Below, one piece after another: positions 14,479 through 61,317 of a stretch of DNA of 64,000 bases. A program made the translations under genes and the position numbers. The stretch's first letter is position 1; each line of letters starts with the position of its first letter. Below the pieces are notes generated by a model. That model did not search any database and was not told where the DNA came from. It worked only from the letters and a program-made list of their open reading frames with translations. Source of the stretch: Spisula solida (lineage: Eukaryota; Mollusca; Bivalvia; Venerida; Mactridae); assembly GCA_947247005.1 (NCBI GenBank), contig OX365953.1, forward strand, positions 6,701,001 through 6,765,000, read 5' to 3'.

Positions 14479-15576
14479 TGGTTTCGAAACTGAAATTGAT
14501 AACACCACATATACCACGAGTCACAGAAACCATTCATCAAATATCGCCTTATAGAAATTTAATAGGTAAAACTCACATTAATAAAGTTATACATAAGCAT
14601 ACACTTATTTCAAGTGCGGTATTGGTTGAAACCCCGAAAAAAATACATGTATGATAAAACAAAAACTCGTTCATGCACGCAATAAATGAAAACACTGTCC
14701 CCGTCCCCCATTCGGTGATTATAAAGTTTGAGGTTCTACCCTTTTCAACGGGGATTGAATGTATGACCATCAATCGGAACGGTCCGTATCGAATTTTTAC
14801 GGGATAAAATACCTCGGATGTATCAAGCGGGTGAATCCAGAAGCTTCTTTCTTAAATCCTACGCAGAAGAAAATGGGCCGAAGAAAATAGACCGTAACTT
14901 ATCAGCAGCGGAAATATCAAAAGCTTTTTTATTGTTTAAACAATACAATTTCGCTAAACTCCTTGGGCATAACTCGCAGCTACACAACGCTTGCTTGATT
15001 GGCGTGTATTCCATTGAAGCACTGTTTAAATATGTCATGATGACGTCACGGCGAAAGAAGTTCAAAATGGCGACGTTCTATTTACACCCGAGAGATGATT
15101 CATAAGATTGTCCGAGGTGTCCCGATTGTATGACCATAATAAACCGTGAAATGTTTCAGCTTTACTCTTTCATTTCGTTTGTTTCAGGTATTCTGTAAAA
15201 AGTATTAGAAGCCGTCGAAACATTTTTTTAAATATAAAAAAAATATATTTATCTCATTGTATGGTTTAAATGAACTTGGCAAAGTAGTTTTGTTAAATAA
15301 AAACTAAACTAAAAAATAATTAGTGGAAGAAAATTAAATACAATAATAACATGAGTCACAACTTTCGAAATTTAATTATATTACATAATAAAAAGAAATT
15401 TAGAAATGCTAGTAGTCTATATGTAGGTGGAATATTTGGCGAAGTATGTCAGTCAGCAATACATCAATCGATTGTTTAAGGAATGCTTTCCAATCTGTTT
15501 CATTAGACTAACTGCTATTCGAAGACCTAAAATGATGGTGTAAAGTGAAATCCAAGGATCAATCGTAACCAGGATC
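14479..15576. other. Gene-free stretch with a CRE/YY1-like site pair
   Basis: A perfect TGACGTCA (15041-15048) is followed 16 bp later by AAAATGGCG (15064-15072), a YY1-like initiator motif. This could mark a promoter, but the ATG it contains opens only 13 codons and no exon follows convincingly. The 95-codon frame at 14818-15105 resembles nothing I know. Confidence 0.35.
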
Positions 15577-15812
15577 AGGGTACTGTTTTATCAAAGCACT
15601 TACGATAATCTTAAAGTTGCGCTCCAATTTAAATCCTGTATAATGCATTAGCAGTTGCAAATTTTGGGAAAGGACTGAAGTATTACTAACTATGTTTCAG
15701 TTATTGAATTCCTACAAACCATGTATTCCCTAGTGTGTATTTGTTCAAGAATTATAAAGAATTTAAATTTGTGCGTAACTTTACGATAAAAGTGCTTTGA
15801 TAAAAGAGTACT
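15577..15812. mobile_element. MITE family TATCAAAGCACTTACG, copy 3
   Basis: Left end GGGTACTGTTTTATCAAAGC; right end AAAGTGCTTTGATAAAAGAG with decayed internal TIR. It ends 15 bp before the next TIR element. Confidence 0.8.
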
Positions 15813-15827
15813 CAGGAGCGGTACATT

Positions 15828-17442
15828 TGTATTCACGAAGCATCTTAAGGACGTTTGATAGGGTGTTTTTTTTTTAATGTTACCAAAAAATAGGCACAAT
15901 TATAGTTTAATGTATACTGAAGCAATATGTGAAATAAAAAAGATATGTCGCGATACTATTTAAGGGGTCATGGGCCCTTTTGCAACATCACTTTTCAAGA
16001 AAAGGACAAAAATTTCAGATATTTCGCAATGTATTCATTTTTGTATGTAAATCGATATTTTTTTCTTGTTCAAATCATTTCCATGTGTTTGTATGAACAA
16101 ACACATATTACTGAAACATTCCTATAAACTTTTGGTATTGATAAGAAAATTCACAATTTTTTGATAAAAAAAGAATTGTCAAAATTTCCGAAAAATGACT
16201 GCTAAAAAAGACAAAAAATACACAAAATCGGCCGTAGCTCAAAAACGACCTTCATGACCAATATATTTTTTATTGCTAATTTTGTTGATAAAAGTGTACT
16301 CAATCCAAATATTAAATAAAAAAGATAGGTCACGGGACTACTTTTTGCGCTATGACGTCATTATTGTCCCCCTATATCATAAAAATCTTAGTGAAATTGC
16401 GTAAAAACGACGCAATATCTGCGCGTAAAAAATATTCTAATACCAAAAGAGTACTCATATTTTCATATTATGTACATGAAAGTATAGTAAATATAAACTT
16501 AGAAGAAATTGACGTGTAACAAGAATTATTTTAGCTGCAGTTACGTCGTAATTGTGTCTCTTTGCAATGCAAATTGCGGTATAATGGCGGTAAAATGGCG
16601 CAAAAAAGGCCAAATTATTACATTTTGCATATATGTTTTTCTCATGATTTTTAGTCTTGTCATATTTTATTTTTGGCTGATTAAAGTGTACTTTATCTAA
16701 AAATTAAAATAAAACATAAGTTTTCACGCTACACTTTGTGCTATTATGACTGGATTATCTCCCCTTTTTCCCAATTTGTCAGTGACCTCGCATTCCATAT
16801 AGCAAGGGGGCACAGATGGCCCCTTACTCGCTCACTTGAATAATCTTCACAATTTTAGTCAAAAGATCATTAATTCATTTCCTATATATCAGTAATAGCG
16901 GATCTTTGTAGTCCCAGGCAATACAAACACTCATTATAAATTGGTACAGGTAACCCAAGTAATAATTTCTAATTTCACAAAAAATGAATGAAAATGTAAC
17001 CGCTATTTCACGCAGAGTGTTTTCTTATTATTTGCTCAGTGAAATAATATTATACCCCAAAATATCCATATTTTTACTAACCCTAGATAGTATCACGACA
17101 CACATTTTGCCTAATTTTCATGACGATCCAGTGCCAAACACGGCCTCTATTCGCGTTTAAGGTATATGCGCAGAAATGATGCGCATAAACAACTGTATTA
17201 AACGTCATTAAGGGAAAACATGGTTTTGTCTTAAAATCTTAAAATTTCTTTAAGTGTATCAGATAAATAGGGAAATCGAGGTCATCATTTTTTACATAGT
17301 TCAGAAGCATTATGTAAAAAGCTACAAGAATCACAAAGAAACCATGGGTTATTCTTCGTTTCTTGGGAAATATGTGCAGCTCTATGGTTTAACTTAAGTC
17401 AAAATACTTAAGTTTACCCATTAAGATGCTTTGTGAATACCA
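15828..17442. mobile_element. 1.6-kb TIR element related to the TGGTATTCACAAAGC MITEs
   Basis: The left end is TGTATTCACGAAGCATCTTA and the right end is the complementary TAAGATGCTTTGTGAATACC. The subterminal AACTTAAGTCAAAATACTTA near 17390 resembles the 11058-11306 copy. Its interior is AT-rich and has short frames only (63 codons at most), with no transposase motif that I can see. It is either a deletion derivative of an autonomous element or a MITE carrying captured sequence. Confidence 0.7.
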
Positions 17443-18690
17443 GTCAAGTACTACTTGAATACTATGTTGTTTGTAAGTGAATTGACACCAGTGTGTCGTA
17501 AATGAAATATATCTATACATATTTGTCTACCAGAGATGTTGTTTAAGAAATTGGTCCTTTAAGATTTTTTACAGACACATTTATAGACAATTTATACATT
17601 AAGTCGCTTGCTAATGCTTTAAATCACCATTTAGAAAACACATTAGCACCCACTATGATCGCTACGTCTCGACAAAGTGATCGTACTTACGTATAACGAA
17701 CCCTATATTATCCTACAAAGTGTACTTAAGATTCGTACCCTCCAATTAGATGATACATAATGATCATCTTCCTTCCCTAATTTAAATGTCCACATACGCA
17801 ATTTGGACATACCAAGTGGTATGTGACATACTATTTGGCTAACACCGACAAAAGAAATCTGTCAACCAACCAAGGATAGCAGATGAGTCGGTTTCAGGCA
17901 AAAAATGCATTAGCACAGAAATATTTTAAAAGTGACATGGATCAGCGTTGAGGACGCCTCGTTAAAATAGGCATGGTGGTAAAACACTTACGGTTGTGTT
18001 AAGTTTGCGTTAACCAAAACTTTCACCACATACCATGTAGTATATCCACACTGTATATGGTATCTCGAACATTATTTTGATTGTACCTTAAATAACAAAG
18101 TCTAAGAAGAACATAGTTTCTTTCAGCAGCCAGTCATTTAGAAGAAAGGGGCATACCTATGTGTACTTACAAAGGGTCTCCGACAGATTTGCGCATAACT
18201 GACTAAAGCAAAATGCTCCAAGAAGGCTCTTAAAGAAAGTGTATATCATTATTAACAGCATTGATGTTACGTTGACGTCGTATGCATTATTTTTATTACA
18301 TGTACTTCATATCCTGGATACAAGTTTTTAAAATACACCTAAGGGATTAAGTCATTCAATAAGTCTCCATTATTTTTCAGGAATGGAGACTTTATTAACA
18401 ATAACTCTCCATTACTTTGTTTACACATTTGAATGAATGTGTAACAAAATAATGGAGAGGTATCGACTCTGTGTATACACACACATATGTAGTACTAAAT
18501 GTACTTGTTGTGCAATATAACACAACATATTCGTACTGTACAGTACAAGATAAATACAGAAAAAACAAGGTTTCATGAATTCATGCATCGATCTTGCATT
18601 ACACACATTTTTATGCAAAAGAATATAAAATTCCGTTAGATCATGCAGCGCCTTTGAATTTGACTATCTGTAATGAGACACAAGAACATA
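17443..18690. other. Gene-free stretch with an inverted CTCCATTA motif
   Basis: No exon is supported. AATAAGTCTCCATTATTTTT and GGAATGGAGACTTTATT around 18358-18395 are complementary, and a second inverted pair (CTCCATTACTTTGTTTACAC / TAACAAAATAATGGAG) follows at about 18406-18458. Confidence 0.45.
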
Positions 18691-18696
18691 CATGTA

Positions 18697-18860
18697 TATG
18701 ATGACGAAAACGCAATATCTTGAAAGCAGGATGGCGAAAGAACGAACGTGACGGTGTGATGACGAAAACGCGAGCAATAAGTATGATAATATGCTATAAT
18801 AATACCGTACTTAAAATGATCGTGTTTTCGTCTTAGTACATTTGCGTTTTCGTCATCATA
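18697..18860. mobile_element. 164-bp TIR element ATGATGACGAAAACGCAA
   Basis: TATGATGACGAAAACGCAA (18697-18715) and its exact reverse complement TTGCGTTTTCGTCATCATA (18842-18860) bound 164 bp. A third GATGACGAAAACGC lies inside. It is a non-coding, MITE-like structure. Confidence 0.75.
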
Positions 18861-19342
18861 TTCACGAAAATGCATCGTCTTTATGATAAACATAATATAT
18901 GTCCACCATGTTTCATCAAGTTTTAAATATCCTGTTATTGTTTATTCACGGAAATATATTCACTGACACTGAACGTTTAGAACACTAGTTTCATCATAAA
19001 CATTTTAATAAGTCCATCATGTTATTTCATCCAGTGACACTGAATAAGTGACCACATTGTCATGGCTTGATCATGTGACACACAAATAACTACACAATCA
19101 TGCTTCATGGACTACACTCCATTACTAGAGTAATGGAGAGTTATTGTATTATTCCACTGGTTTCACGAAAAAGCATGATCTACTCGGTCTGGCATGGTCA
19201 AGTTTGTGTTTTGATTATCAATAAGAGGTACATGAGGGACGACTTGTTTTAGTTAACATTTATTTTATAACAATTTTGAAATTTACTCCAAATTTACATA
19301 AAATAAAAATAACATTTGACAATATGGTGTATTTTAAGTCAG

Positions 19343-19430
19343 AGAAAGTCCGCGTATCTGTCCATTCCTGAGAAATAATGGAAACTCGTCTCCATTATTT
19401 CTCAGGAATGGACAGATACTTGTACTTTCT
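19343..19430. repeat. Long near-perfect hairpin
   Basis: Two arms of nearly 40 bp with a loop of about 9 nt. The left arm contains GTATCTGTCCATTCCTGAGA and AATAATGG; the right arm contains CCATTATTTCTCAGGAATGG and ACAGATAC. AGAAAGT and ACTTTCT extend the pairing. The same CTCCATTA core is inverted at 19105-19137. Confidence 0.85.
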
Positions 19431-19639
19431 CCCTAACATAATAATAATAATAACGACTTTATTTAAAGAGGCATAACAGTTGGGCAAAACCAGTCTTCCC
19501 TGTGAGCCACTATGACGAATGGTTTGTACATATACATGTTTAAAACATAAAGTATTGATAATACTCCTTAAAAGAAAAAACAAACATGTGACATATTCAC
19601 AAACCGACATAAAACAATATATGTGACATATTTACAAAC
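19431..19639. other. Left flank of the 12-kb inverted structure
   Basis: Contains a short (ATA)n run and a duplicated ATATGTGACATATT.ACAAACCGACATA at about 19585-19645. No clean terminus or target duplication for the following inverted structure is visible here. Confidence 0.4.
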
Positions 19640-21330
19640 CGACATAGGTCGGGGTCGCAGCTCTTAGCTTGTTGGTCGCACCTATTAGCTCGTAGATGTT
19701 TACCTCATAGGTCGCAGCTCGTAGGTCGTTGGTCGCAGTTCTTAGGTCGTTGGTCGCAGCTCCTTACTCGTTGGTGGCAGCTCTTAGCTCGTAGATATTT
19801 ACTCGTTGGTGGCAGCTCTTAGGTCGTTAGTAGAAGCTCTAAGGTAGTAGGTCGCAGCTCTTAGCTAGTAGATGTATACTCGTTGGTCGCAGTACGTAGG
19901 ATGTTGGTCGCATATTTTAGTTGGTTGTTCGCAGCTCATAGCTCGTCGGTGGCAGTTCATAGATGGTTGGTCGCAGCTCTTAGCTTGTAGATGTTTACTT
20001 GTTAGTCGCAGCTGAAATGCCGTTGATCGCAACACGTAGGCAGTTGGTCGCAGTTCGTAGATCGTTGGTCGCAGCTGTTATGTCGTTAGCCGCGGCTATT
20101 AGCTCGTAGATTTTTACTCGTGAGTCGCAGCACGTAGGTCGTTAGTCGCAAGTCGTAGGTCGTTGGTTCCAGCTCGTAGGTCGTTAGTCGCAACTCGAAG
20201 GTCGTGGATGTTTACTCGTTTACAGTTTTTATGTCGTAGGCCGCAGCTCTTAGCTCGTAGAAATTAACTCGTATGTCGCAGCTCGTAGGTCGTTGGTCGC
20301 AACTCTTAGGTCGTTGGTTGCAGCTCGAATGTCGTTGGTCGCAGTTCTTAGGTCTTTGGTCGCAGCTCCTACATCGTTGGTGGCAGCTCTTATCTCGTAG
20401 ATGTTTACTTATTGGTGGCAGTTCGTAGGTCGTAAGTAGAAGCTCTAAAGTCGTAGGTAGCAGCTCTTAGCTCGTAGATATATACTCGTTGGTCGCAGTA
20501 CGTAGGTCGTTGGTCGCATCCTTTAGTTCGTTGTTCGCAGCTCTTAATAGCTCGTCGGTGGCAGTTCATAGATGGTTGGTCGCAGCTCTAAGCTCGTGAA
20601 AATTTACTCGTATGTCGCAGCTCGTAGATCGTTGGTCGTTGGTCGAAGCTCTTAGGTTGTTGGCCGCAGCTATTAGCTCATAGATGTTTACTCGTTGGTT
20701 GCAGCACGTAGGTCATTTGTCGCAGCTAGTAGGTAGTTGGTCGCAGCTCGTAGGTCCCTGGTCGCAGCTCGTAGGTCGTGGATGTTTATTCGTTGGTCGC
20801 ATCACGCCAGTCGTTGGTCGCAGCTCGTAGGTCGTTAGTAGAAGCTCTTAGGTCGTAGATATATAAATACTCGTTGGTCGCAGCACGTAGGTCGTTGGTC
20901 GCATCAGGATAGTTCGTTGTTTTCAGTTCTTAGCTCGTTGGTCGCAGGTCTTAGGTGGTTGGTCGCAGGTCTTAGCTTGTAGATGTTAACTCGCTCGTGG
21001 CAGCTGAAATGTCGTTGGTGTCAGCACGTTGGCCATTGGTCGCAGCTCGTAGATCGTTGGTCGCAGCTCTAAGGTCGTTGACCGCATTTCTTAGCTCGTA
21101 TATGTTTACTCGTTAGTCGCAGCACGTATGTCGTTAGTCGCAGCTCGTAGGTCCCTGGTCGCAGCTCGTATGTCGTTGGTCGCAGCTCGTAGGTCCCTGA
21201 TCGCAGCTCTTAGGTCGATGTTAACTCGTTAGTCGCAGCTAATCGGTCGTTAGTCGCAGGTCCTTGGTAGCAGCTCTTATGTCGTTACACGCAGCTCTTA
21301 GCTCGTAGATGTTTACTCGTAGGTCGCCGC
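19640..21330. repeat. Degenerate 20-21-bp minisatellite GGTCGCAGCTCGTAGGTCGTT, outer left arm
   Basis: About 1.7 kb built from GGTCGCAGCTC(G/T)TAG, GTCGTT and AGATGTTTACTCGTTG modules in variable order, with an approximate period of 19-21 bp. A shorter reverse-complement version (GAGCTGCGACCAACGACCTA) occupies 31376-31692. The two together form the outer arms of a 12-kb inverted-repeat structure. Divergence between units is high, implying an old or fast-mutating array. Confidence 0.9.
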
Positions 21331-21409
21331 ACCTACCTACCTACCTACCTACCTACCTATCTACCTACCTACCTACCTACCTACCTACCTACCTACCTAC
21401 CTACCTACC
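21331..21409. repeat. (CCTA)n microsatellite, left arm
   Basis: About 20 tetramers of ACCT with one TATC interruption, ending at GCGCCATTTTG. At the corresponding place in the right arm the complementary TAGG tract has become a TAGGG pentamer array. Confidence 0.95.
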
Positions 21410-22990
21410 GCGCCATTTTGGCACAAAAGTGACAGTAATTATAAACAGTGCATTTAAGTTAATTTAATTAGAAGATTGGTTTTTTGGAAGTTTGCAGGCA
21501 TAGATCAGCATATTATAAAACTATTTGATTTTTGAATGATTTCTTACAGGAAATCTGAAACTCTTCAAATTAAGTCCCCACGAAATGGTCTTTTTTACCA
21601 AAACTACGAACTTTAGTCCCATTGAAATTAAATGATTTTACAGTATGTCGAAACTTTATGTTATAGTTAGAACATATTAAGTAAATTTTAATGATTAAAA
21701 AGGCCAGAGCGAGCGAAGCGAAGCGAGGCCTTTTTAGTCATTAAAATTTACTTAATATGTTCTAACTAACTTAGAATATAACATTCTGCATTCTGATTGG
21801 CCGATAGAAATTAGCGCCAACGCATGACGTCAAGTCTGTTAAGAGAAAATTTTAATGATTAAATTTTCATTTAACCGCGAAAATGCGGCGTTTTCATTCG
21901 CTCATAATGTAGGTTATATTCTAACAGGTTTTACCTTTTAGACTTTTCGTAGTTTCTTCTGCAGGTAATTATTAAAATATTTAATGTCACTTTCATACTT
22001 ATAAGGACACACTACAATATTTTAAGGGGATCGGACAGGGAGCGTAGCATGACCGTGCGACCACATACACGCGTCAAGGGGGCTTGTTTATCCCTAACAA
22101 GAGACAAACAGAAATAGAAACGTAAGGCGGTGCTGCTGAGTCAAATACGAGCTCCATGGCCACCCCTTCTTATCTAAGAGGGAAGAAGGGGTGTAGGGAA
22201 ACAACCACAGAGCAAGCCAAGCAAAACAGACTACGCCAAACGCTTGAAATTTGGATGACCCATTACGAAACATACACTTTATATATGACTGCTAAGTGAC
22301 TAAACGTGGATTTTATTTCGTGAATGCCTTGATAAATATGTATGTCAGACAATTCGAATCTTGCAATAAATTTCATGAATTTTAATGAGACGATTACGCC
22401 TGAATTAAATACTATATTGTCCAAATTTCGTTACACTTGGCTATGAATTGAATAAGATATATCATAAATTAGAACAGATCAGGTTATGTTTTCATCTTCC
22501 CTTTGTTATATTTCCTACCCCGGGGCATATAACGTAAACTAAACGTAGCCACATAATAAATATAGATTTGCACAACAATTTTCACACCTTTTCACACGTG
22601 ACGATACCTGTCCAAATTAAACCTTGCCAGGACGCAGTGATCTCCCCATACCGAGGTCGGATATGACTGTCTCTACCTTTCCAATTGTTTCACATTCAGG
22701 AGTGTTACAATATTCTACGAGCGACTGCTGTCTATTAATGTGACACAAGCCCGAACAACAGGAAAAAGACATTTTCAGAGACAGGGGCACGATGCAACTC
22801 CAAAGCACTTTCATAGTCTAAAAGCCCGGTAATCTCACCACCCTATATACTATAATGGTGGTTTACGCTCTGTACGCATGCACAAAGATCGATATACATA
22901 CATTTTAATATATGTACAGTACAACCTCTGTAGATCAACGCCCTTTGGCACTACAAATATTGGTCTTTGTTTCGAGGTTGTAACTATACA
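21410..22990. repeat. Inner left arm of the inverted-repeat structure
   Basis: From GCGCCATTTTGGCACAAAAG at 21410, the sequence matches the reverse complement of 30812 leftwards through the TAAGTCCCCACGAAATGGTC, TCAAGGGGGCTTGTTTATCC and CTCCATGGCCACCCCTTC segments, as far as a single copy of the 99-bp motif (about 22917-22990). The match is high, with scattered substitutions. A 65-codon frame (22617-22814, minus) has a counterpart at 29662-29859 on the plus strand. All seven base differences between them change the amino acid, so it is not a conserved protein. Confidence 0.9.
21661..21926. mobile_element. CRE-bearing repeat element, copy 2, inserted in the left arm only
   Basis: The uninterrupted right arm (reverse complement CGAAACTTTATAAGGTTTTG) shows the empty site; the left arm reads CGAAACTTTATG, then about 266 bp of insert, then GGTTTTACC. 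The insert contains a near-perfect palindrome (TTAAGTAAATTTTAATGATT ... and its complement) around a GAGCGAGCGAAGCGAAGCGA loop, plus TGACGTCA at 21825-21832. It is the same family as 9276-9518. Confidence 0.85.
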
Positions 22991-25104
22991 GTGGTTAAAT
23001 GTGTAGTAAATATCAACTTAGGGAAATTTCGAATTGTTATACAGATGTTGTTGTTATACAGTGGGCCGCTCTGGAGAGGTTGTACTGTAGACGCGTCGTA
23101 GATAGCTTTGATTTCTACTACCGTTCAAATACATGTTTTTTGAGTATGAAGGCATTAAAGGGACGAAATGTTATCGACCTAGGAAAAACAGAGTTATAAA
23201 TGTTGAGCCATTTAATGTGTGCACATTGAATTGGGTTGTTGAAATGTCAATGGTGTTATGAATATCACTCATACATACAGTTTCGGTCGCAACATCCAAA
23301 TACATGTCTGTCTACATTTTTATCTTATTTTAAAGACTTATACCCAAATTACAGGAGAGTGAGAATGAGCCGGCTGCCCTGTAGGAAAAGCAATTCGAGG
23401 TACATTCTTACAATTCGAAATGTATTCTGTCTGCAGTCCGAGTGCATTCCATATGTTTGGGCTAATTTGAATGTTTTAACATGCTATAAACCTATTTCGT
23501 TAGAAATAAAATACATACTAAACTAAATCAAAGCACTGAGAGTACTATTGGGAGGCGATCTGGTTGCTGCTACTAAAGCTTAAACCGACTTCACACGTTT
23601 AGTGTTCGTTTTCTTACTGCCGATCGTGTCTTGAATGTCAAAATAGGCATATGTGACTATATAGGCATGTTGTGTATCTAAATAATTGTTAAAAGTTGCA
23701 TATTAATATATATGTAATTCGTGTATTGAATGCGTATATCAAAAGTGGCTTTAAAATAATACTACGCGCCTATTTATCAGATTCTACAGTACCGTCTTGT
23801 ACACTTCCCTCACAGCGGGAGACAGTCTATAGAAAACGGCTAGCTAGTACAGCGACACCATATGAGTGCATAACAGTACTTTGCAGACCGTATACGATTC
23901 ATTGATAAAACCATCACTTGACCGTAGTCTGAAGTTTCTAAAAATAGCTTTACAGCCGGGACATTTGATGAACACGTCATTTTCGTACTATTAAACAAGT
24001 TCGGTATCAGCCGGTGTAGTGATTTTTTGGCCAAAATATCGATTTAACGAACAGTTTCACAATAATTTTTGATCTTAGGATAAACAAATGTTGCTGATTG
24101 GCTTAAATCAGTTAAAAAATTTGGAGAAACATATGTAGCAGTATTGGGAATGTTGACAGTTTCTGGAACAACTTGAATGCGGATTCACATAGCAGCCTAA
24201 AGGCGGTTAATTTTGTATTAAGAAATGGGCAATGGTAGTAATGAGAGGCTTAATCGCCTCCCAAAAACAAATATGCTTTAAACATCTGTATTTATTCGAA
24301 TGGTCTAGATCACAAGGCGTTGGAATGAGACGAAATGTCGTCAGAATAAAATTTCAAGGGGTATTCCTGCATGATCCAAGTGCATTCTTAACATTCTGTC
24401 TGCACTCGGGCATTCGGCATATTCCGGCCCATTATTCTTGCGCCACGTGGAATGTTTTGCGCCTGTTCCAAACTTTCGAGATGCATTCGAGGTAGGATAA
24501 AATATCGAACGGCTTTCGAAGTCTATTCTTCCGACATTCTGGTTACATTGTAAATATTCTTACGGCATGCGAAACATTACTTAAAACCAGTATATCTGTC
24601 AAAACCACCATAATGTTACATTTCTTGATAGGTAATTGTATGTATTGACCAATCAGCGCTCTTATTTTACTCATACCATATTTGACCAAAGCTAAATATG
24701 TATTAAAATAAGCGTCGAATATTTCATTAGCGTTCTTAGCGCAGTGCGGTAAATGCATGGTGTCAGCAAAAATCATTGGCGAAATCCAAGTAAGGGTTCG
24801 AATCCAGCTCTACACGCTGTTACTTTTGTAATGCTTTTTCTAATATTGCTTCTGATGTTCTTAAATACCGTAGTCATTCTTTTTTTGCAATAAAAGTAGC
24901 TGGCTTGATATAGATACGCATTGTTTTTGTTAATATTTACTACATGTAGTACATTGAATGCAGCGATTTCCAGCTTCGAAGGATGAACTCAATCCTGGAG
25001 TGCTGGAATACAAATGCAAATAGATCTAGTTTATTCATTCTATGTATGTAATCACCGGAATGAGCAAAAGCATTAATATACATAATGTAAGCAAAATTAA
25101 CCAC
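22991..25104. other. Left part of the central region between the inverted arms
   Basis: No coding exon or transposase motif is recognised. Frames reach 96 codons at most and have no family features. At about 24740-24812 a tRNA-like tract has an A-box-like TTAGCGCAGTGCGG and a perfect B-box GGTTCGAATCC, probably a SINE head. Confidence 0.4.
24740..24812 (+). repeat. tRNA-like tract (SINE head or tRNA pseudogene)
   Basis: TTAGCGCAGTGCGGTAAATG fits a Pol III A-box and GGGTTCGAATCC is a canonical B-box, about 50 bp apart. The acceptor stem does not pair, so I do not call a functional tRNA. Confidence 0.4.
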
Positions 25105-25360
25105 TCGGCTATACAGTGTAGCAATACCACGTGACATTTGGCTACAGTTACAAGAAGAAATTTGTAAACATTGGAAAATAAAATAGCCATAAGTATTTTA
25201 TTTCTTAATCGATTTCTATGAAATATACGCCACGCTAAGGGGAACATTATTTGTTTTTCATGAAATATAAGATCTTTTTCAGCAGCTTTACCGATTTTTT
25301 CATTACCCTGTGAAACCTATACGTTCCACGGTTTCGCAGGGTAATGGACAAAACGGGACA
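25105..25360. mobile_element. Half copy of the 423-bp palindromic element
   Basis: From GTGTAGCAATACCACGTGAC to the inverted ATTACCCTGTGAAACC ... GGTTTCGCAGGGTAAT it matches the left half and centre of the element at 60738-61160. The right half is missing, leaving one arm plus the central hairpin. Confidence 0.85.
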
Positions 25361-26082
25361 GCCGCAGAATATATAAATTTCCGCGAGCAAATCGTGCAAT
25401 ATCGGTTCTTTAGATTTGTGTTGGTATTACAACTCGAGCGTATTCGTGATACTCTCCGCTTATGAAAACATACAACCGGGGTAATAAATATAGACAATAT
25501 ATCAGCTGTTAAATTATGCTAATTGAAGGTCGAGAGTCGTGTCAAATTCTCTGGACTATAAATGCGAAGTGTATTCTAATTTTATTTGAACTATATTCGA
25601 ATTATCTTCGAAGTATTACAACGGCATTTTGACAAAGCTGTAACAATTTTGGTCAATTCGTGTTTTCATTTGGAATGTATTTCGAATTTTTAGTTTTACT
25701 TTATTCAGACTCATTCCGGCTGATTCGAGATTCGTGTGATTGTGGTACTAGTATTAAGCAAAGCATTCACCAAAGGCAGCAGTTCAAATCAAGTGGATAC
25801 CAGTATAATTATGTTAGAAAGTTTTTTTATGAAAACTCTCTGAGCACTAACAAGTGCTGTACGAGGGGTGATCCAGAAATAATAGGACATTTCTCATATC
25901 TTCTTACACAACACGTAGATGAAATTTATCTCATATGCCTAGTAATTTATGATCTATATACTGACAGCAACATATGTTCTGTGTTGTTGGTGATTCTCAT
26001 ACGAAGCGTTGTCAAAGAAACCATGTCATACTGCTATTTTACATTACTATCAAATATATAAAAATGTGAATATCTTAGTAAC
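25361..26082. other. Unassigned central sequence with a 133-codon frame
   Basis: The frame at 25660-26061 is the longest in the central region, but its product is unrelated to anything I know and has no start or splice context. Part of it (ACGAGGGGTGATCCAGAAAT at 25860) resembles a mariner-type terminus, with no matching second end nearby. Confidence 0.35.
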
Positions 26083-26957
26083 CACTATATATACTTAACA
26101 ACTTTTCTAAGTCCTCATTTTCATTGATTAATAACTTTTTTATTATAAACAGGGACGCAACCAAACTTCACAAGTGACGTTTGTATGCGGCAAACAAACT
26201 AATCCATGTCACAAACTGGCCGTATGTCACGTGGTTTTGCCATTGTTAGACGCACGTGCCTTTTGCGTTTTTCTCCCTCCACGAAGTTACACATCCCCGG
26301 AATTTGTTACAAACACTCACAAATTATGCCCAAAGACTCGCCATGTACGAAAAACATTTAAAAATTAATTTTAATATCACAGTTATGCGTCCGACAATGT
26401 CAGAATAAAGATGACGTGACGTCGGTACGGTGCAGTGTGGCATTTTCTGTCGACAAGTCATAATAATTACCTAAAACATTACTGTCTAATTGATTTACAA
26501 CATATACATGTCTTCGAGTGTTCAGTTAAAGGTAATTTTATTGGTTGTCTATCGTAAAATGCAGGTTGCTAGAGCGTTTGTCAGGTTGAAGTGACGTTAT
26601 GACGTTACATCGGGCTACTCCGGAGACGTGATACCACTTCGAGTTCAGACAGTAAAATTCAACGAGTCTATTCGTTCAGCAATGTATCCGAGTCTCGTCT
26701 GTGGCTGCTAGCAGAAAATCAGACTACATGGTGGTCATCCCAGATATTATGACTTTTACCTTCTTTAGTTGTTATGTTAAGATGGTTTTCATTCTAAAGA
26801 TATAATACGAAATCGACGTGTTAATGTACGATTCTGCACAACGATAACACACGCATATTATAGCCAAATTTCATTGAGATATATACAAGATTGAAAAAGT
26901 TATCATCAAAAATATAAGTGAGGACTTAGAAAAGTTGCTAAAGTATATATTATAGCG
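26083..26957. mobile_element. 0.87-kb TIR element nested in the central region
   Basis: The left end holds ATATATACTTAACAACTTTT and CTAAGTCCTCA, then AATAACTTTTTTA. The right end holds the complementary AAAAAGTTAT, TGAGGACTTAGAAAAGTTGC and TAAAGTATATATTA, giving TIRs of about 55 bp with mismatches. The interior is non-coding apart from a 64-codon frame at 26174-26368 that I do not recognise. The family is unknown. Confidence 0.65.
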
Positions 26958-27097
26958 CCTAATTGTACGGCATTACTTGGATGCCACTGACATGTGCATG
27001 CAATCTAATGAAGCAATAGATCTTTGTCTATGATCATACGTGAGAATACAAGTGTGTGTTTCCAAGAGCGTCATGGGAGAAACTACGTCAACGCCAA

Positions 27098-28069
27098 ACT
27101 AGAGCTGTACCACTTGAGTGATGAATCATACCTCCACAGCACTGCCTTGACACAGGAATATTATTTAAAATTAAAGTCTTGAATGACTACTAGTATATAA
27201 CCTTTGACCTCTTATTGTGACCTTGACCTTTGAACTAGGGGCCTTGTTCTTGTGCATGACACATCGTCTTGATGTGGTGAACGTTTGTACCAGGCCATTT
27301 TAAAATCCAATAGGAAACGACAAAGTTACAGAGAGGACACGACTTGTATGACTATTTAACCTTGGATCTCTAAGTGTGACCTTAACCTTTGAGCTAGAGC
27401 GGTGTATCATGCGCATGGCACACCGTTTTGATGTGGTGAACCTTTGTACCGAGCCATTTTAAAATACAGTAAGAAACGACAAAGTTAAAGAGCGGACACG
27501 ACTTGCATGAATATATAACCGTTGACCTTTGAGCTAGGAACCTAGGTATTGCGCATGACACTCCGTCATGATGTGGTGAACATTTGTACCAAGTAATATA
27601 AACATCCAATATGAAATGACATAGTTACAGAGCGGACACAATTTACATGCCTATGTGAGCCTTTTAAAATTTGACCTCTAAGTGTGACCTTGACCTTGGA
27701 GCTATGGACCTAGGTTGTGCGTATGACACATTGTCTTGATGTGGTGAACATTTATACCAAATATTATAAATATTCAACAAGAAACGACAAAGTTACAGAG
27801 TGGACAAAATTCACATGCCTATTTGAGTCTTTTAACCTTTGACCTCTAAGTGTGACCTTGACCTTTCAGCTAGGGACCTAGGTCTTGCGCATGCCACATT
27901 GTCTTGATGTGTTGAACATTTGTACCAAGCGATTTCAAAATCCAGTTAGAACTGACAAAGTTACAAATATTGCTAACAGACCAACTGACCAACCAACAAA
28001 TGTACCAACGAACCGACCAACATAGTGCCTTCAGTATATCCCCTTCAAACTTTGTTTGCGGGGGTATAA
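27098..28069 (+). repeat. Long (about 1 kb) family B element with an internal array
   Basis: It starts ACTAGAGCTGTACCACTTGA and ends TTCAAACTTTGTTTGCGGGG GTATA, the ends of family B. Inside are about six diverged units of roughly 150 bp containing GACCTCTAAGTGTGACCTTG, GATGTGGTGAACATTTGTAC and GAAACGACAAAGTTACAGAG. Perfect TGACCTTGA motifs (ERR/NR5A half-site type) occur at 27218, 27685 and 27853. There is no coding region. Confidence 0.85.
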
Positions 28070-28654
28070 AAACTAGAGACCGCCAATTGTTAAATAATGG
28101 TAAGAATTGAAAAACTCAACAATGTAATCCCTTTAAATAATTAAATAAGCAGAACGTAGTGACATTAGGTTTTCTGTTGGTTCAAATTGTTTACAGATCG
28201 CGGAGATATGAACTAACAAGTGAACACAGGTCAGGTCACAGAAAAGGTAGTTTGACGTTGATAGACACCGTTCGTACACTGATAGAGGCTTCAATGTTAG
28301 AGGAATTTCTAACGTCACTGTAACCTAATTTTTGGGAACAGTGGTACAGAGACACATTTAAACAATGGGGACTGTAACATCAGATCTATTTTGAAAGTCA
28401 GGGTGCCTATACGTATATTATTAAGTGTGTTTTTCCTTAAAAATAAGGTTGTGTTTAAATATATTATCACATGTTTGACGTCGCGGTAGCGTAATAAAGC
28501 CATTATTTATTTTTGATAATACACTAGTGTAATAAAGTTATCACGCGACGTCATTCAAAGGATAGGCGACGTCGTCAAAGTTGCGCGTTTATTATAGTGA
28601 AAAATAAGTAGCGATTTTATGTTTCGGCCGGAAAAGGCTAACATGTGATAAAAA

Positions 28655-28800
28655 GAATATTACATTTGTGACTTTCCACATTGAATTTATTAAACTCGTT
28701 GAAAAAAAATCGATAAAATGCTCGGCAGAGCCTCGTATTTTATTATTCTATTCAACTCGTTTAATAAATTCAATATGGAAAGACACTCATGTAATATCCT
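28655..28800. mobile_element. Palindromic repeat with GAATTTATTAAACTCGTT arms
   Basis: The left arm (ATTACATTTGTGACTTTCCA, TTGAATTTATTAAACTCGTT) and right arm (AACTCGTTTAATAAATTCAA, GGAAAGACACTCATGTAAT) flank a TGCTCGGCAGAGCCTCG loop. It resembles a short foldback element. Confidence 0.75.
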
Positions 28801-28939
28801 CTATATATTTGCCATTTCCTTTATATTTTGATACAGTATAAACATTCCCTCATTAAAACTGTTGAACAGAAATATCGGTCAACAGTCAATTGCACTACAG
28901 GAATAACCAGAGTAAATATGTTAAGTTTGTAGCATCTAA

Positions 28940-29570
28940 AGGGTTGATCTACAGAAGTTGTACTGTACATTTATTATCAATTAAACCTCTGTATAGTAAC
29001 AACCTCGAAACAATGACCAATATTTGCAGCACCCTAAGGGTGTTGATCTACAGAGGTTGTACTGTACATATATTATAATTTTAATTTTTGTATAGTAACA
29101 ACCTCGAAACAATGACCAATATTGGCAGCACACTAAGGGTGTTGATCTACAGAGGTTGTACTGTACATATATTATAATTTTAATTTTTGTATAGTAACAA
29201 CCTCGAAACAATGACCAATATTGGCAGCACACTAAGGGTGTTGATCTACAGAGGTTGTACTGTACATATATTATAATTTTAATTTTTGTATAGTAACAAC
29301 CTCGAAACAATGACCAATATTTGCAGCACCCTAAGGGTGTTGATCTACAGAGGTTGTACTGTACATATATTATAATTTTAATTTTTGTATAGTAACAACC
29401 TCGAAACAATGACCAATATTTGCAGCACACTAAGGGTGTGGATCTACAGAGGTTGTACTGTACATATATTATAATTTTAATTTTTGTATAGTAACAACCT
29501 CGAAACAATGACCAATATATGTAGCACCCATAGGGTGTTGATCTTCAGAGGTTGTATTGTACATATATTA
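28940..29570. repeat. 99-bp tandem repeat, about 6.4 copies
   Basis: The marker CAGAGGTTGT recurs at 29051, 29150, 29249, 29348, 29447 and 29546 (CAGAAGTTGT at 28952), always 99 bp apart. Because 99 is a multiple of three, an artefactual 175-codon frame runs through it on the minus strand. A single copy of the unit sits at the equivalent position in the left arm (about 22917-22990), so the array is a right-arm expansion of a pre-existing motif. Confidence 0.95.
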
Positions 29571-30812
29571 AAATGTATGTCTCTCGATATTTGTGCATGA
29601 GTCCAGAGCGTAAACCACCAGTAGAGTGTATAGGGTGGTGTGATTACCCGGCTTTTACACTATGACAGTGCTTTGGAGTTGCATGGTGCCCCTGTCTCTG
29701 AAAATGTCTTTTTTCTGTTGTTGGGGCTTGTGTCACATTAATAGACAGCAGTCGATCGTAGAATATTGTAACACTCCTGAATGTGAAACAATTGGAAATG
29801 TAGAGACAGTCATATCCGACCTCGGTATGGGGAGATCACCGCGTCCTGGCAAGGTTTAACTTGGACAGGTATCGTCACGTGTGAAAAGGTGTGAAAATTG
29901 TTGTGCAAATCTATATTTATTATGTGGCTACGTTTAGTTTACGTTATATGCCCCGGGGTAGGAAATATAACAAAGGGGCGATGAAAACTTAACCTGATCA
30001 GTTCTAATTTATGATATATCTAATTCAATTCATAGCCAAGTGTAACGAAATTTTGACAATATAGTATTTAATTCAGGCGTAATCGTCTCATTAAAATTCA
30101 TGAAATTTATTGCAAGATTCGAAATGTCTGACATATATGTTTATCAATGCATTCACGAAATGAAATCCACGTTTAGTCACTTAGCAGTCGTATATAAAGT
30201 GTATGTTTCGTAATGGGTCATCCAAATTTCAAGCATTTGGCGTAGTCTGTTTTGCTTTGCTTGCTCTGTGGTTGTTTCCCTACACCCCTTCTTCCCTCCT
30301 TGATAAGAAGGGGTGGCCATGGAGCTCGTCTTTGTCTCAGCAGCATCGCCTAACGTTTTTATTTCTGTTTGTCTCTTGTTAGGGACAAACACGCCCCCTT
30401 GACGCGTGTATGTGATCGCACGGTCATGCTACGCTCACTGTCCGATCCCCTTAAAATATTGTCGTGTGTCCTTATAAGTATTAAAGTGACATTTAATATT
30501 TCAATAATTACTTATTTATCTAAATGCAGAAGAAACTACGAAAAGTCTAAAAGGCAAAACCTTATAAAGTTTCGACATACTGTACAATCATTTAATTTCA
30601 ATGGGAATAATGTTCGTGGTTTTGGCAAAAAGACCATTTCGTGGGGACATAATTTCAGAGTTTCAGATTTCCTGTAAGAAATCATTCAAAAATCAAATAG
30701 TTTTATTATATACTGAACTATGCCTGTAAACTTCCAAGAAACCAGTCTTCTACTTTATTGAACTTAAATGCACTGTTTATAAATACTGTCACTTTTGTGC
30801 AATAATGGCGCG
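29571..30812. repeat. Inner right arm of the inverted-repeat structure
   Basis: Reverse complement of 21410-22916 without the 266-bp insert. Landmarks are CCCGGGGTAGGAAATATAAC, GTAATGGGTCATCCAAATTT, CTTGTTAGGGACAAACACG and GTCACTTTTGTGCAATAATG. Scattered substitutions and a few small indels separate the arms, so this is not a recent duplication. Confidence 0.9.
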
Positions 30813-31211
30813 GTAGGTAGGTAGGGTAGGGTAGGGTAGGGTAGGGTAGGGTAGGGTAGGGTAGGGTAGGGTAGGGTAGGGTAGGGTAGGGTAGGGTAGG
30901 GTAGGGTAGGGTAGGGTAGGGTAGGGTAGGGTAGGGTAGGGTAGGGTAGGGTAGGGTAGGGTAGGGTAGGGTAGGGTAGGGTAGGGTAGGGTAGGGTAGG
31001 GTAGGGTAGGGTAGGGTAGGGTAGGGTAGGGTAGGGTAGGGTAGGGTAGGGTAGGGTAGGGTAGGGTAGGGTAGGGTAGGGTAGGGTAGGGTAGGGTAGG
31101 GTAGGGTAGGGTAGGGTAGGGTAGGGTAGGGTAGGGTAGGGTAGGGTAGGGTAGGGTAGGGTAGGGTAGGGTAGGGTAGGGTAGGGTAGGGTAGGGTTGG
31201 GGTAGGTAGGT
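30813..31211 (+). repeat. (TAGGG)75 pentamer array flanked by TAGG
   Basis: TAGGG runs from 30822 to 31196, 75 exact copies, with (TAGG)n remnants on both sides (GGTAGGTAGGTAGGG and GGGGTAGGTAGGTAC). The plus strand is strongly G-rich and could form G-quadruplexes. It is not the animal telomere repeat TTAGGG. A 160-codon frame on the minus strand (Pro-Thr-Leu-Pro-Tyr repeats) is an artefact. Confidence 0.97.
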
Positions 31212-31375
31212 ACTGTTTAATTGGTGAAAAAAAATACGGGCCTCATTATGAGAGATGCCTAATGATGACAATGTGGCATCACGCGGTGGATTCGTGAACT
31301 ATGTCTTATCTACGTGAAAATACAAAAATAATCTGTATAAAAGACATCGAGAAGTTTGCTGTTTATCTGCCAGAC
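31212..31375. other. Unique spacer between array and outer arm
   Basis: About 160 bp with no counterpart in the left arm, where the microsatellite directly abuts the minisatellite. It may be an insertion, or sequence lost from the left arm. Confidence 0.5.
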
Positions 31376-31692
31376 CTAAGAGCTGCGACCAACGACCTAT
31401 GAGCGGCGACCTACGAGTAAACATCTACGAGCTAAGATCTGCGTGTAACGACATAAGAGCTGCGACCAATGAGCTAAAGGCTGCTACCAATGACCTACGA
31501 CCTGAGACTAACGACCGACGAGCTGCGACTAACGACATACATGTACGTGCTGCGACGAACGAGTAAACATCTACGAGCTAAGACCGGCGACCAAAGACCT
31601 ACGAGCGGTGACCAATGACTTTCGAGCTGGGACTAACGACCTACGAGCTGCGACCACCGAATGAACATCTTCGAGCTAAGAGCTGCGACCAA
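31376..31692. repeat. Outer right arm minisatellite (reverse complement of 19.6-21.3 kb)
   Basis: AAGAGCTGCGACCAACGACC, GAGTAAACATCTACGAGCTA and related modules repeat for about 315 bp, the reverse complement of the left outer array. It ends at CTGCGACCAAATTCAC. Confidence 0.9.
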
Positions 31693-31795
31693 ATTCACTT
31701 TTGCGATACAAAACTTTTAACATAGCATTGGATTCCTTCCCGATTGAGTCAATTGACTATTTTATTTTAGGTCGATTGTTACTAGTACATCGATT

Positions 31796-32400
31796 GTCGA
31801 TGTCAGGGCTGGGTAGGTATTCGATCCTAGGTCTGTATTCGCCGTCGGTATACATCGATTGCTGATCTCAGAGCTGGATCGGTATTCGACCCTAGGTCTG
31901 TATTCGCCATCGGTAAACGTCGAATGTCGATGTCAGAGCTGGCTCTGTATTCAAACTCAGATCTGTATTCACACATCTTATTTCGCTAATTTTGATCTCA
32001 GAGCTGGATCGGTATTCGATCCTAGGTCTGTATTCGCCGTCGGTGTGCATCGAATCTCGATGTCAGAGCTGGCTCTGTATTCAAATTCAGATATGTAATC
32101 AAATGCCTTATTTTGCGAATGTCGATCTCAGAGCTGGGCGGGTTTTCGATCCAAGGTCTGTATTCGCCGTCGATTTACACGGAATGTTGATGTCAGACCT
32201 GGCTCTGTATTCACCCACCTTATATTGCGAATGTCGATCTCAGAGCTGGGTCGGTATTGGATCCTAGGTTTGTATTCGGCCTCGGTTTACATCGATCGAT
32301 GTCAGATCTGGCTCTGTATTCCACCACTTTATTTTGTGAATGTCGATCTCAGAGCTGGGTCGGTATTCGATCCTATGTCTGTATTCGCCGTCGGTATACT
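31796..32400. repeat. 110-130-bp tandem repeat, about 4.5 copies
   Basis: The marker TCTCAGAGCTGG recurs at 31866, 31996, 32126, 32238 and 32347. Each unit contains TCGGTATTCGATCCTAGGTC, TGTATTCGCCGTCGGT and ATGTCAGAGCTGGCTCTG. Frames of 79-115 codons across it are repeat artefacts. Confidence 0.9.
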
Positions 32401-32565
32401 AGTAAGCAAGTTTTCCCAACTTTTATCAATTACTGTCGACACCTCATTCCTGATGTTATACATCGCCACGAGGGTATTAGATAAGATATTCCAGTTTCCC
32501 CTTTATGCTCAGCATCTAGCAAGGAATATACTGGCACCCTTTTTATTTCGTATTTGGTATGACGC

Positions 32566-32632
32566 GGCCTAGGACCGAAACCGGGACGCCCGCACTCGAA
32601 GCGGATGCGCAACCACTAGGCTACCGAGGAGT
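32566..32632 (-). repeat. tRNA-derived SINE head (minus strand)
   Basis: The reverse complement reads CTCGGTAGCCTAGTGGTTGC (perfect A-box TAGCCTAGTGG) and, about 35 bp on, CCCGGTTTCGGTCC (degenerate B-box). The fold does not close as a tRNA. Confidence 0.55.
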
Positions 32633-32639
32633 CAGACTA

Positions 32640-34880
32640 ATTATGTCCAAAGGGAGATCACTGCGTCTGCGTAAAATATTACATGTACACTGACAGTTAT
32701 CTTTAATTTAGTCCTGCAAAAAATATACACTCAACGCTTGTACATTGATTGAGTATAACGTTACAGACATGTTTCGACAAATGTTGGTATTATATTTTAA
32801 ATTAACACAATGTATAACAGTTTATTTTGGACTACATATACGTGTTTAAAGTGTAAACACACATGACCTACTAATCGAACTTCATTTATACACAGTGTTC
32901 CAGTTTCAAGGTGGACTTCAAACAACAGTATCATACATGTGTACATGTAATGGTGTAGTACATACTTATTCAATTTATCAGCGTTAGATATCAACTCTAA
33001 CCTATCGCAGGATATATGTACAAAATTGGTAATGCGTGTATACGACAGCAAATGAGAAATATTTCAATGGATTGCCGATAATTTAAGGTACGTTGCATTT
33101 ACTGTATAATACTATACTATTAATTATACAGTGTGTAAGAAAATATGAATAACGTGTATGAGTAGTATAGTACGGATAATGTTAAATAATCCTCGACCTT
33201 CTATTAGTATAACACGAAATATATTGTCTATAGTTATAACCCCGGTTATAACGCCCGAGGTGAAATAAAACAAACCCGAAGGACCGTTTTATCACGATTT
33301 GCTCGCGGAAATTGATACATATAACGCAGGAACCATGTAATATATGCATGCATAAAGGTCAGGATCAGGTCAAATAAGTACTATACTCCTGTTTTATTTT
33401 CATAAATTATTATTTGACACTGATACGGTAACCAGGAGATGCGTATGAATACCAAACGAGTTGTATTCACCCGGTTAAACAATCAAATAGTTTTTTTTTA
33501 TAAATTACATAAAATCAAATATTATTATACATTTTTGTATATATTTCAAACAATGCATATGATGTATGAATATACATGCGCATGTACATGTATGTTCATA
33601 CATGTCCGGATCATGGTGTAAACTCGAGTATAAGGCTTTAAACTGGCTTTTTAATCTTACATTATTAATTAGCGAATGCTTTCAAGTTTCTACATCATAG
33701 ATGCATAATTGCAAGCCTACTAGTATATGTATGTATTTGGATTTTATTAATAAGATACACAGAGCATGCGCATATGCAAGTTTTAAATGCCACGGAGGAC
33801 GTGTTTAAGAAATGTGATACCGAATATTCACACTTATAAGTCGGCCATGGTTATAAGACGAGCCCGTACAATGGACCGTAAGATTTTAGCATAGGCAGTC
33901 ATATAAGTCTGATCACTTATGCGTGAGAACATACGGTACCTTAATGTATAAACGAGTACCTGTAAAGGTATTATCAAATTTACACTTTAAACATTTTTAT
34001 GTACTAATATCACAATTAAGATTACAAATGTTCAACGTTTCGTAGGGAAAAGGTTACAAAACGTTTAAATGTCCTTTAAAGTATTTTTGGTAGCTCAACT
34101 TAAAATCATCAATGTGAAACCCTTCAAAATCAGAACACTACTTTATTTTTCAAGTCCATCGCATTTGTTCTGTCAATGCCACATTAAATATGACTTGTAT
34201 GGATGATAATGCTATGCTCTCATAGTGCGGAGAATTTGAAACAATCCCCGGCCTTTTCTATAAGCATTATGTAACAGCTGTGATCTTGTCATTATTCATA
34301 ACCCCGGTTCACAGTACATTTTTATTAGCAGATAGTATCACGAACACGCTCGATGTGTAATTTAAAAACACAAATCTAAAGGACTGATACTGCATGATTT
34401 TCCTACGTAAATGTATATATTCAAAGCAAGAACCTTGTAATTTTTCATGCATGAAGGTCAGGATCAACTCAAATTATCCGTACTATATATCATAATTGTA
34501 TATATGCTATTTGGATAAGTGATACACGGAACAGTTGTCTTGAACTATTTGTATGTTGTGTTTTACGCTATTCTCTATACTGTGTTTCAGCCTGTAAGCC
34601 TAACTGACATGGACACTACGATAACAAGCCTAGCAGTAATAACTTCCGATTTTCCGCCATTCCACTAACAAGTGAACGGTTCTTCACAATTTCATGGCAA
34701 GCGTTTGCTTTTGGTTGTAGAATAGGGGTGAGGTGACTGTGACAGCGAATATATTATCTGAGCTAGCATGATCGACTGATGCACACGATCTGTAGTCTCG
34801 CCTAAAATTTTGTATTAATGGTCAAAATATAAAATTTCCCAATGTCAAAACTGTTCTAAATGTGATGTGTTATTTATAAC
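32640..34880. other. Gene-free stretch upstream of the HSD3B-like gene
   Basis: No exon, TIR element or tandem array is supported. Two short diverged copies of the same sequence are present: ACCCCGGTTATAACGCCCGA at 33239 and ATAACCCCGGTTCACAG at 34298, both followed about 90-120 bp later by a catgCATgaAGGTCAGGATCA-type segment. This suggests an old duplicated repeat. Any promoter of the downstream gene would lie here, but none is recognisable. Confidence 0.4.
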
Positions 34881-34913
34881 TTTTACCTTTACAATAGAAC
34901 ACATTGGTAGATT

Positions 34914-35064
34914 ATGACGGATTCTGGGAAACAGACGTGCGCCATCTTGGTTACTGGTGGCGCTGGATTCCTAGGACAACATCTGATTGGTCTACTACAA
35001 ACACGTGCTGATCACGTGACGGAAATACGGGTACTTGACGTTGTTCCGTTTGAGAATAAACTAG
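34914..35064 (+). CDS. HSD3B: HSD3B-like exon 1
   Basis: Begins with the start codon (context GATTATGA, a weak Kozak match) and holds the NAD-binding beta-alpha-beta fold. The donor is AAACTAG/GTAACT. A pyrimidine-rich TTTACCTTTACAATAG just before (to 34897) could be an acceptor, making this exon follow a non-coding 5' exon. Confidence 0.9.
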
Positions 35065-44060: not shown

Positions 44061-44150
44061 TGGAATAAACTTGACTGCGATCATGCCCTTCACGTCTGAA
44101 GGAAGAGTTAGTCACTTAATTAATAAGAGTAGGCTTATGTTAGTGCTGTT

Positions 44151-44875: not shown

Positions 44876-45218
44876 ATTTAATTCCAAATCATTCTACTCA
44901 TTATTGTGATAATATACAATTCAACGTGTACTCCTTATTGTGATTGAAACATCCGGTGATTTTCCATCACTGTACTCATTATTGCGATACAATACAATTC
45001 AACGTGTACTCATTATTGCGATAACCGGAAGTTAACTCGATTATACACTGTGATGTTTAGTCTAATAAATTTATAATTGCCCTTAAATAGGCCTAGAAAT
45101 GTGTGAAATCCCAGCATCTGTTAGCAAACCCCATAGTGCTAAGAACATGGCCATTTCTATACTAAATACGTACATCTGTAACACGGTTACCTGTTTTCAA
45201 CAGCCATATTTGAATTAA

Positions 45219-50915: not shown

Positions 50916-51001
50916 CAGAACTTGTTTTTAAGGATTATAAATACCCATCCCTCCACTGAAGTAGAACAGCATAATTTAAGTATAATGTAATAAACAGTTA
51001 A

Positions 51002-61160: not shown

Positions 61161-61317
61161 ATGTAGCTGGTTTAAGTCTTCTTTAATCACTGTAATTTAA
61201 TTGTTCCAAGAATGATAAAATGATTACAAAAGGGTATTTTATAAAGGAAATCGTGTCAGTTGAATAGTCTGTTTCATTCGGTAGATATTACCATATTATA
61301 CCGATACTATAATTCTG

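What the first reader, a model, noticed from the sequence alone, without database searches (positions are those of the whole stretch)
19640..31692. A 12-kb foldback-like structure with mosaic inverted arms
Two arms in inverse orientation each contain, from outside in, the same four blocks: a degenerate GGTCGCAGCTCGTAG minisatellite, a TAGG-type microsatellite, a 1.2-1.5-kb unique block and a 99-bp motif. They enclose about 6 kb without a recognisable gene. Long inverted repeats with internal tandem arrays are the hallmark of foldback (FB/Galileo-type) transposons, but this one is far larger than typical MITEs and I recognise no transposase. It could be a new foldback family, or an inverted segmental duplication.
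Basis: partly seen in the sequence, partly recalled or inferred. Interest (0 to 1): 0.85.

Follow-up and report, generated by a model that had tools for sequence, protein, structure and literature searches.

The report
Inverted duplicate of a repeat-rich segment
In what appears to be a clam genome, a roughly three-kilobase stretch of repeat-rich DNA occurs twice in opposite directions about six kilobases apart; it resembles a foldback jumping gene, but the marks that would prove one were not found, so it is most likely an ordinary old inverted duplication.

Summary
Two inverted arms share, in the same order, a 21-bp minisatellite, a short-unit microsatellite, a 1.3-kb unique block and part of a small inverted-repeat element. 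The block (with the first 76 bp of that element) is 93.9% identical between arms: 80 mismatches of 1314 aligned positions. The arms descend from one composite segment: the minisatellite next to the microsatellite matches at 64 of 66 bases, against at most 58 of 66 for 1553 overlapping stretches further out. The foldback reading is not established. No target-site duplication exceeds chance, nothing is shared beyond the arrays, and no transposase domain reaches a curated cut-off in any frame. The best reading is an old inverted duplication with a truncated right copy. Two inverted insertions of a dispersed repeat, or a decayed foldback element, remain real rivals; the window has another inverted pair of tandem-repeat elements (HINE-like). 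The decisive genome-wide copy search did not complete (12 attempts).

The parts
19645..21330 (+). Left-arm minisatellite, degenerate 21-bp unit (GGTCGCAGCTCTTAGCTCGTT type), with higher-order periods such as 77, 98 and 119 bp
   Evidence: all 62 consensus matches in the window (up to 4 substitutions) lie in this array or the right one
21331..21409 (+). Left-arm microsatellite, ACCT x 19.8
21410..22914 (+). Left-arm unique block, including the nested MITE
   Evidence: outside the arms its only matches in the window (5 rows, E up to 1e-3) fall in the nested MITE
21657..21925 (+). Palindromic MITE nested in the left arm only; related sequence at 9262-9525
22915..23089 (+). pogo/Tigger-like MITE with both ends (CAGTACAACCTCT inverted repeats, TA at each side); arm homology ends inside it near 23011
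   Evidence: the superfamily name is recalled, not tested against a repeat library
23090..28935 (.). Centre: no coding match, piled-up repeats, no shared inverted homology found between its two halves
26087..26950 (.). Element in the centre with inverted ends (32-base alignment, 94%)
27194..27965 (+). Tandem repeats of 159-168 bp in the centre
28936..29574 (-). Right-arm 99-bp tandem array, 6.5 copies; each unit is about 75 bp of one MITE end plus 24 bp of flank
29575..30811 (-). Right-arm unique block
   Evidence: no match in the window outside the arms at E up to 1e-3
30812..31210 (+). Right-arm microsatellite, GGTAG x 80.2
31211..31372 (+). 162-bp spacer found only in the right arm
31373..31692 (-). 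Right-arm minisatellite, same 21-bp family, inverted

Best explanation
An old inverted duplication. A segment of about 3 kb (minisatellite, microsatellite, 1.3-kb unique block and the near end of a pogo/Tigger-like MITE) was copied in the opposite orientation about 6 kb away. The left arm looks like the source: it has the longer minisatellite and the MITE with both ends. The right arm looks like a copy cut off inside the minisatellite on its outer side and inside the MITE on its inner side. Both breakpoints fall in repeats, which suggests repeat-mediated breakage or template switching. Afterwards the arms diverged by about 6%, the tandem arrays changed length independently, a palindromic MITE entered the left arm and the 99-bp array grew in the right. 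Shown: common descent of the arms, where homology ends, and the arm-specific differences. Inferred: the direction of copying, the mechanism and the order of later events. No function as a 12-kb unit is proposed.
For: Arms 93.9% identical over 1314 aligned positions and collinear block by block. The minisatellite next to the microsatellite is positionally homologous: 64 of 66 bases match between arms, while the best of 1553 overlapping left-array stretches starting before 21198 reaches 58 of 66 (the stretch was picked after the repeat search had shown it). Homology stops inside the MITE: both inverted ends are present on the left (22917-22936 and 23068-23087), while all 7 right-arm matches have one orientation (9 matches in all). 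No inverted homology found beyond the outer ends or between the inner flanks. No target-site duplication above chance. Neither unique block has a further copy in the 64-kb window.
Against: Homology ends at the outer edge of the minisatellite in both arms, as a transposon arm ending in its array would also do. The right arm has a 162-bp spacer that the presumed source lacks, so the left must have lost it or the right gained it. Copy number in the genome is unknown. Known foldback copies can lack target duplications: the Cg-1 element of Meloidogyne javanica has none and a truncated arm (PMC3169594, passage).
Confidence: 0.42

Rival explanations
1. Two independent insertions, in opposite orientation, of one dispersed composite repeat that carries a tandem array and a microsatellite, in the manner of the Helentron-derived HINE elements of bivalves.
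For: The window holds a second inverted pair of that kind: 44149-44876 and 50999-52151, about 90% identical, 145-bp tandem units (3.9 and 6.9 copies), each copy with 10-base subterminal inverted repeats that 0 and 4 of 500 random region pairs reach. The order left flank, short-unit microsatellite, variable spacer of 10-500 bp, tandem array is that described for oyster HINEs (PMC7492417, passages).
Against: No subterminal inverted repeat common to both arms: the longest exact inverted match is 9 bases in the right arm (reached by 198 of 500 random pairs) and a different 10 bases in the left (28 of 500). No shared sequence follows the arrays. The left arm has no spacer between microsatellite and array. 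No third copy of the unique block in the 64-kb window.
Confidence: 0.25
2. A foldback (FB/TU/Tm1/Tetris-like) transposon, moved as a unit by a transposase supplied in trans, with decayed or truncated ends and a centre enlarged by nested insertions.
For: Long composite inverted arms, tandem arrays outermost and unequal in length, centre without coding match. Arm identity of 93.9% is close to the mean of 93.15% reported for the two TIRs of Tm1 elements, whose TIRs are mostly 13-15 bp tandem repeats, have asymmetric outer motifs and may differ in length; one Tm1 copy lacks target duplications (PMC3169594, passages). Tetris has three-domain TIRs with tandem repeats and no known autonomous copy (PMC4079207, sections 10 and 17).
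Against: Best 9-base match between the outer flanks has 2 mismatches, reached by 167 of 300 random pairs; the microsatellite edges taken as ends do no better (162 of 300). The two outer ends start at different points of the array, with nothing shared outside. No transposase domain reaches a curated cut-off in six frames of 19640-31700 or of about 4.7 kb on each side.
Confidence: 0.27
3. Assembly artefact (inverted mis-join of haplotypes).
For: Bivalves are often highly heterozygous (recalled); no reads were available.
Against: Allelic copies would stay alike beyond the arms, but outer and inner flanks share nothing found, and the arms differ by a nested MITE, a spacer and three array lengths.
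Confidence: 0.05

Closest known systems
Tm1 Mutator/Foldback elements of root-knot nematodes (PMC3169594; passages seen)
   Same: Composite inverted arms dominated by short tandem repeats, unequal in length; about 93% identity between the two arms
   Different: Complete Tm1 elements mostly carry 8-10 bp target duplications (45 of 53 in the paper) and some encode a putative transposase; neither was found here. The repeat unit here is 21 bp and a microsatellite and a 1.3-kb unique block are part of the arm
Tetris foldback element of Drosophila virilis (PMC4079207; abstract and sections 10 and 17 seen)
   Same: Modular long arms (up to 1,735 bp) with a tandem-repeat domain, centre without apparent coding capacity, no transposase
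   Different: Tetris has 8-10 bp target duplications and an outermost flanking domain outside its tandem repeats; here the array is outermost and no target duplication was found
TU elements of sea urchin (recalled only; the one literature search naming them returned nothing)
   Same: Inverted arms with an outer domain of short tandem repeats and a unique inner domain (recalled)
   Different: Target-site duplication (recalled as 8 bp) not found here
HINE / Pearl (non-autonomous Helentron) elements of bivalves (PMC7492417; passages seen)
   Same: Microsatellite, variable spacer and tandem array in one element
   Different: No subterminal inverted repeat common to both arms and no shared 3' end found; the arms' unique block is 1.3 kb

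Membership tests
Foldback transposon (FB, TU, Tm1, Tetris type) | Long inverted arms containing tandem repeats | tested here: met
Foldback transposon (FB, TU, Tm1, Tetris type) | Target-site duplication of about 8-10 bp at the outer ends | tested here: not met
   best matches of 8, 9 and 10 bases equalled or bettered by 72, 167 and 236 of 300 random pairs; microsatellite edges instead: 85, 162 and 75 of 300
Foldback transposon (FB, TU, Tm1, Tetris type) | Defined outer ends shared by both arms | tested here: not met
   arrays start at different points, no homology found outside; note that Tm1 ends are asymmetric too
Foldback transposon (FB, TU, Tm1, Tetris type) | Several copies at different loci | not tested
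   The genome search 'own' gave no answer in 12 attempts; no further copy in the 64-kb window
Foldback transposon (FB, TU, Tm1, Tetris type) | Related transposase in some copies | tested here: inconclusive
   none in this copy or about 4.7 kb either side; other copies could not be seen
HINE / Pearl element | 5' and 3' subterminal inverted repeats | tested here: inconclusive
   none common to both arms; a 10-base match in the left arm is reached by 28 of 500 random pairs, a 9-base match in the right by 198 of 500; the HINE-like pair at 44 and 51 kb served as positive control (0 and 4 of 500)
HINE / Pearl element | Short-unit microsatellite followed by a tandem array | tested here: met
   the spacer between them is absent in the left arm
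Inverted duplication | Collinear homology between arms, ending at points that are not transposon ends | tested here: met
   (inner end inside a MITE; the outer end, at the array edge, does not discriminate)
Inverted duplication | Arm sequence confined to this locus | not tested
   genome search unanswered (12 attempts); within the 64-kb window the unique blocks occur only in the two arms

The most novel reading that the evidence does not exclude
A new bivalve foldback family whose arms end in a 21-bp minisatellite and whose target duplications have decayed; the arms would be mobilised by an unknown transposase, and would act as seeds for three kinds of tandem array.
Probability: 0.2. Interest if true: 0.5.

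Novelty: new member of a known kind. Interest (0 to 1): 0.22.

Why it matters
As an inverted duplication it is one more example of repeat-associated rearrangement in a bivalve genome. If other copies with common ends exist, it would be a bivalve foldback family carrying three kinds of tandem array, useful for asking how transposon arms seed satellite DNA, as proposed for Tetris (PMC4079207).

Tried and rejected
Transposase in the structure or its flanks: Pfam matches at the thresholds used (E up to 1, or 0.1 for the flanks) were all below their curated cut-offs. The strongest were RlmN_N (E 1.2e-4, 22.1 bits against 24) in the 99-bp array, I_LWEQ (E 0.0011) and an ice-binding repeat (E 0.0017), which I regard as chance matches; one weak helix-turn-helix match of a transposase-associated family in the right arm (HTH_OrfB_IS605, E 0.15) is dismissed likewise. 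The flank matches to 3-beta-HSD are also below cut-off singly and are kept as a gene because they continue in profile order to a fragment above cut-off.

Structured RNA: no Rfam match in the whole window at gathering thresholds. Relatives in viral contigs by exact DNA patterns, one from the minisatellite and one from the unique block: 0 matches each. Relatives through a spurious reading frame of the right arm (30354-30674): 1 candidate, none at E 0.001 or better.

A 6-base match between the outer flanks (TACAAA at 19633 and 31707) was considered as a target duplication and rejected: it would leave unmatched ends, and such matches are common by chance. A 10-base match with 2 mismatches at the microsatellite edges (21310 and 31214) is reached by 75 of 300 random pairs. 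In one search the comparison of the proximal minisatellite missed its partner because the left array was cut at 21331; one search replaced it. The first Pfam scans had left out the outward strand of both arms and the inward strand of the arrays; filled this in.

Full report
What is there. The window is eukaryotic. The best protein match of a gene fragment at 41032-41811 is a Mactra antiquata protein (66% identity, E 1.3e-101); Mercenaria and Ruditapes proteins are also among the 7 hits, so the source is most likely a heterodont bivalve (inference). BLAST of the window against itself gives 21926-22990 against 29485-30562 (93.3%, 1623 bits) and 21332-21659 against 30564-30900 (88.6%, 382 bits), both inverted. 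The unique block plus the first 76 bp of the adjoining MITE aligns over 1314 positions with 80 mismatches (29 transitions, 51 transversions), K2P 0.063; the left arm's nested MITE was left out. Mismatches per full 100 columns range from 2 to 12 and are highest at the two ends.

The arms are homologous, not just alike in composition. Two minisatellites of one family could arise separately, so I compared the arrays position by position. The 66 bases of the left array next to its microsatellite match the right array at 64 of 66; the best of 1553 overlapping left stretches that start before 21198 reaches 58 of 66. The stretch had first been seen in the repeat search (pair I22), so this is a measurement of a noticed feature, not a blind test. 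In the right arm 30 further bases of minisatellite and a 162-bp spacer follow before the microsatellite; the left arm goes straight into it. Consensus matches to the minisatellite (up to 4 substitutions) number 62 in the window, none outside the two arrays.

The 99-bp motif explained. The left arm has, at 22915-23089, a small element with inverted ends CAGTACAACCTCT and TA at each side. I call it pogo/Tigger-like from recall of such ends; no repeat library was available. The right arm's 6.5 tandem copies (28936-29574) are each made of about 75 bp of one end of this element plus 24 bp of its flank. All 7 right-arm matches to the end pattern have the same orientation, whereas the left element has both ends (9 matches in all). 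Homology between the arms therefore stops inside this element, near 23011 on the left and 28969 on the right.

Tests of the transposon reading. Outer flanks: the best 8-, 9- and 10-base matches have 1, 2 and 3 mismatches, equalled or bettered by 72, 167 and 236 of 300 random pairs of the same size. If the microsatellite edges are taken as the ends instead, the figures are 1, 2 and 2 mismatches and 85, 162 and 75 of 300. Inverted matches between 15000-19645 and 31693-36500 (12 best shown) and between 23090-25900 and 26100-28935 (1 found) were of 11-19 bases with E 0.098 or more. Six-frame Pfam scans of 19640-31700 and of 15000-19646 and 31693-36502 gave no transposase and no match at its curated cut-off; the weak matches are listed under Tried and rejected. 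The longest listed stop-to-stop frame in the centre is 142 aa and has no Pfam match.

An internal yardstick. At a cut-off of 200 aligned bases, 80% identity and 1 kb separation, the window's self-matches comprise 19 rows: 11 inverted rows that fall into three pairs, and 8 direct rows. One of the other inverted pairs, 44149-44876 with 50999-52151, is two copies of a HINE-like element with 145-bp tandem repeats and 10-base subterminal repeats, lengths that 0 and 4 of 500 random region pairs reach. Inverted pairs of tandem-repeat elements can thus arise here from what look like separate insertions. The arms of the finding do not show a comparable feature in common: the longest inverted matches are 9 bases on the right (198 of 500 random pairs) and a different 10 bases on the left (28 of 500). 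The unique blocks have no further copy in the window.

Choice between explanations. The foldback reading is attractive: Tm1 elements have arms made mostly of 13-15 bp repeats with a mean identity of 93.15% between the two arms, asymmetric outer motifs, and at least one copy without target duplications (PMC3169594, passages); Tetris has modular arms and no known autonomous copy (PMC4079207). Divergence of the arms therefore does not rule it out. But at about 6% divergence a 9-bp target duplication would on average carry about half a mismatch and should still be visible (inference), and none is. The right arm is truncated inside a MITE that has both ends in the left arm, and its minisatellite is a fifth as long. 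A truncated inverted copy explains this without a transposase. I put 0.42 on inverted duplication, 0.27 on a decayed foldback element, 0.25 on two insertions of a dispersed repeat and 0.05 on artefact; the checks did not change these odds.

Limits. The test that would settle the matter, the number and ends of other copies in the genome, could not be run: the tool did not answer in 12 attempts. Literature searches for foldback, fold-back or Mutator elements with bivalve, clam or mollusc terms (listings only, 10, 1 and 2 papers) returned no paper whose title or displayed abstract start describes a bivalve foldback family; the library lacks most subscription journals.

Noticed in passing
44149-44876 and 50999-52151: Two inverted copies of a HINE-like (non-autonomous Helentron) element with AGCTCACCTG / CAGGTGAGC subterminal repeats, a CGTC-type microsatellite and 145-bp tandem units (3.9 and 6.9 copies).
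   Followed up: partly
34947-41316: Fragments of a 3-beta-hydroxysteroid dehydrogenase-like gene on the + strand in profile order (about 34947, 36272 and 41098; the first two just below Pfam's cut-off, the third above), starting about 3.3 kb beyond the right arm.
   Followed up: partly
39693-41024: 31-bp tandem array of 43 copies (89% matches) ending just before the third 3-beta-HSD fragment.
   Followed up: no
2136-2910: 70-bp tandem array of 11 copies, 98% matches.
   Followed up: no
31786-32399: Degenerate tandem arrays of 65/130 and 109 bp about 90 bp outside the right arm; no such array was listed just outside the left arm, where there is a 35-bp duplication (19577-19646).
   Followed up: no
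19356-19417: Near-perfect short palindrome just outside the left arm, seen by eye.
   Followed up: no
25111-25369, 60739-60994, 60903-61162: Repeat family with one copy in the centre of the structure and two overlapping, oppositely oriented matches near 61 kb.
   Followed up: no
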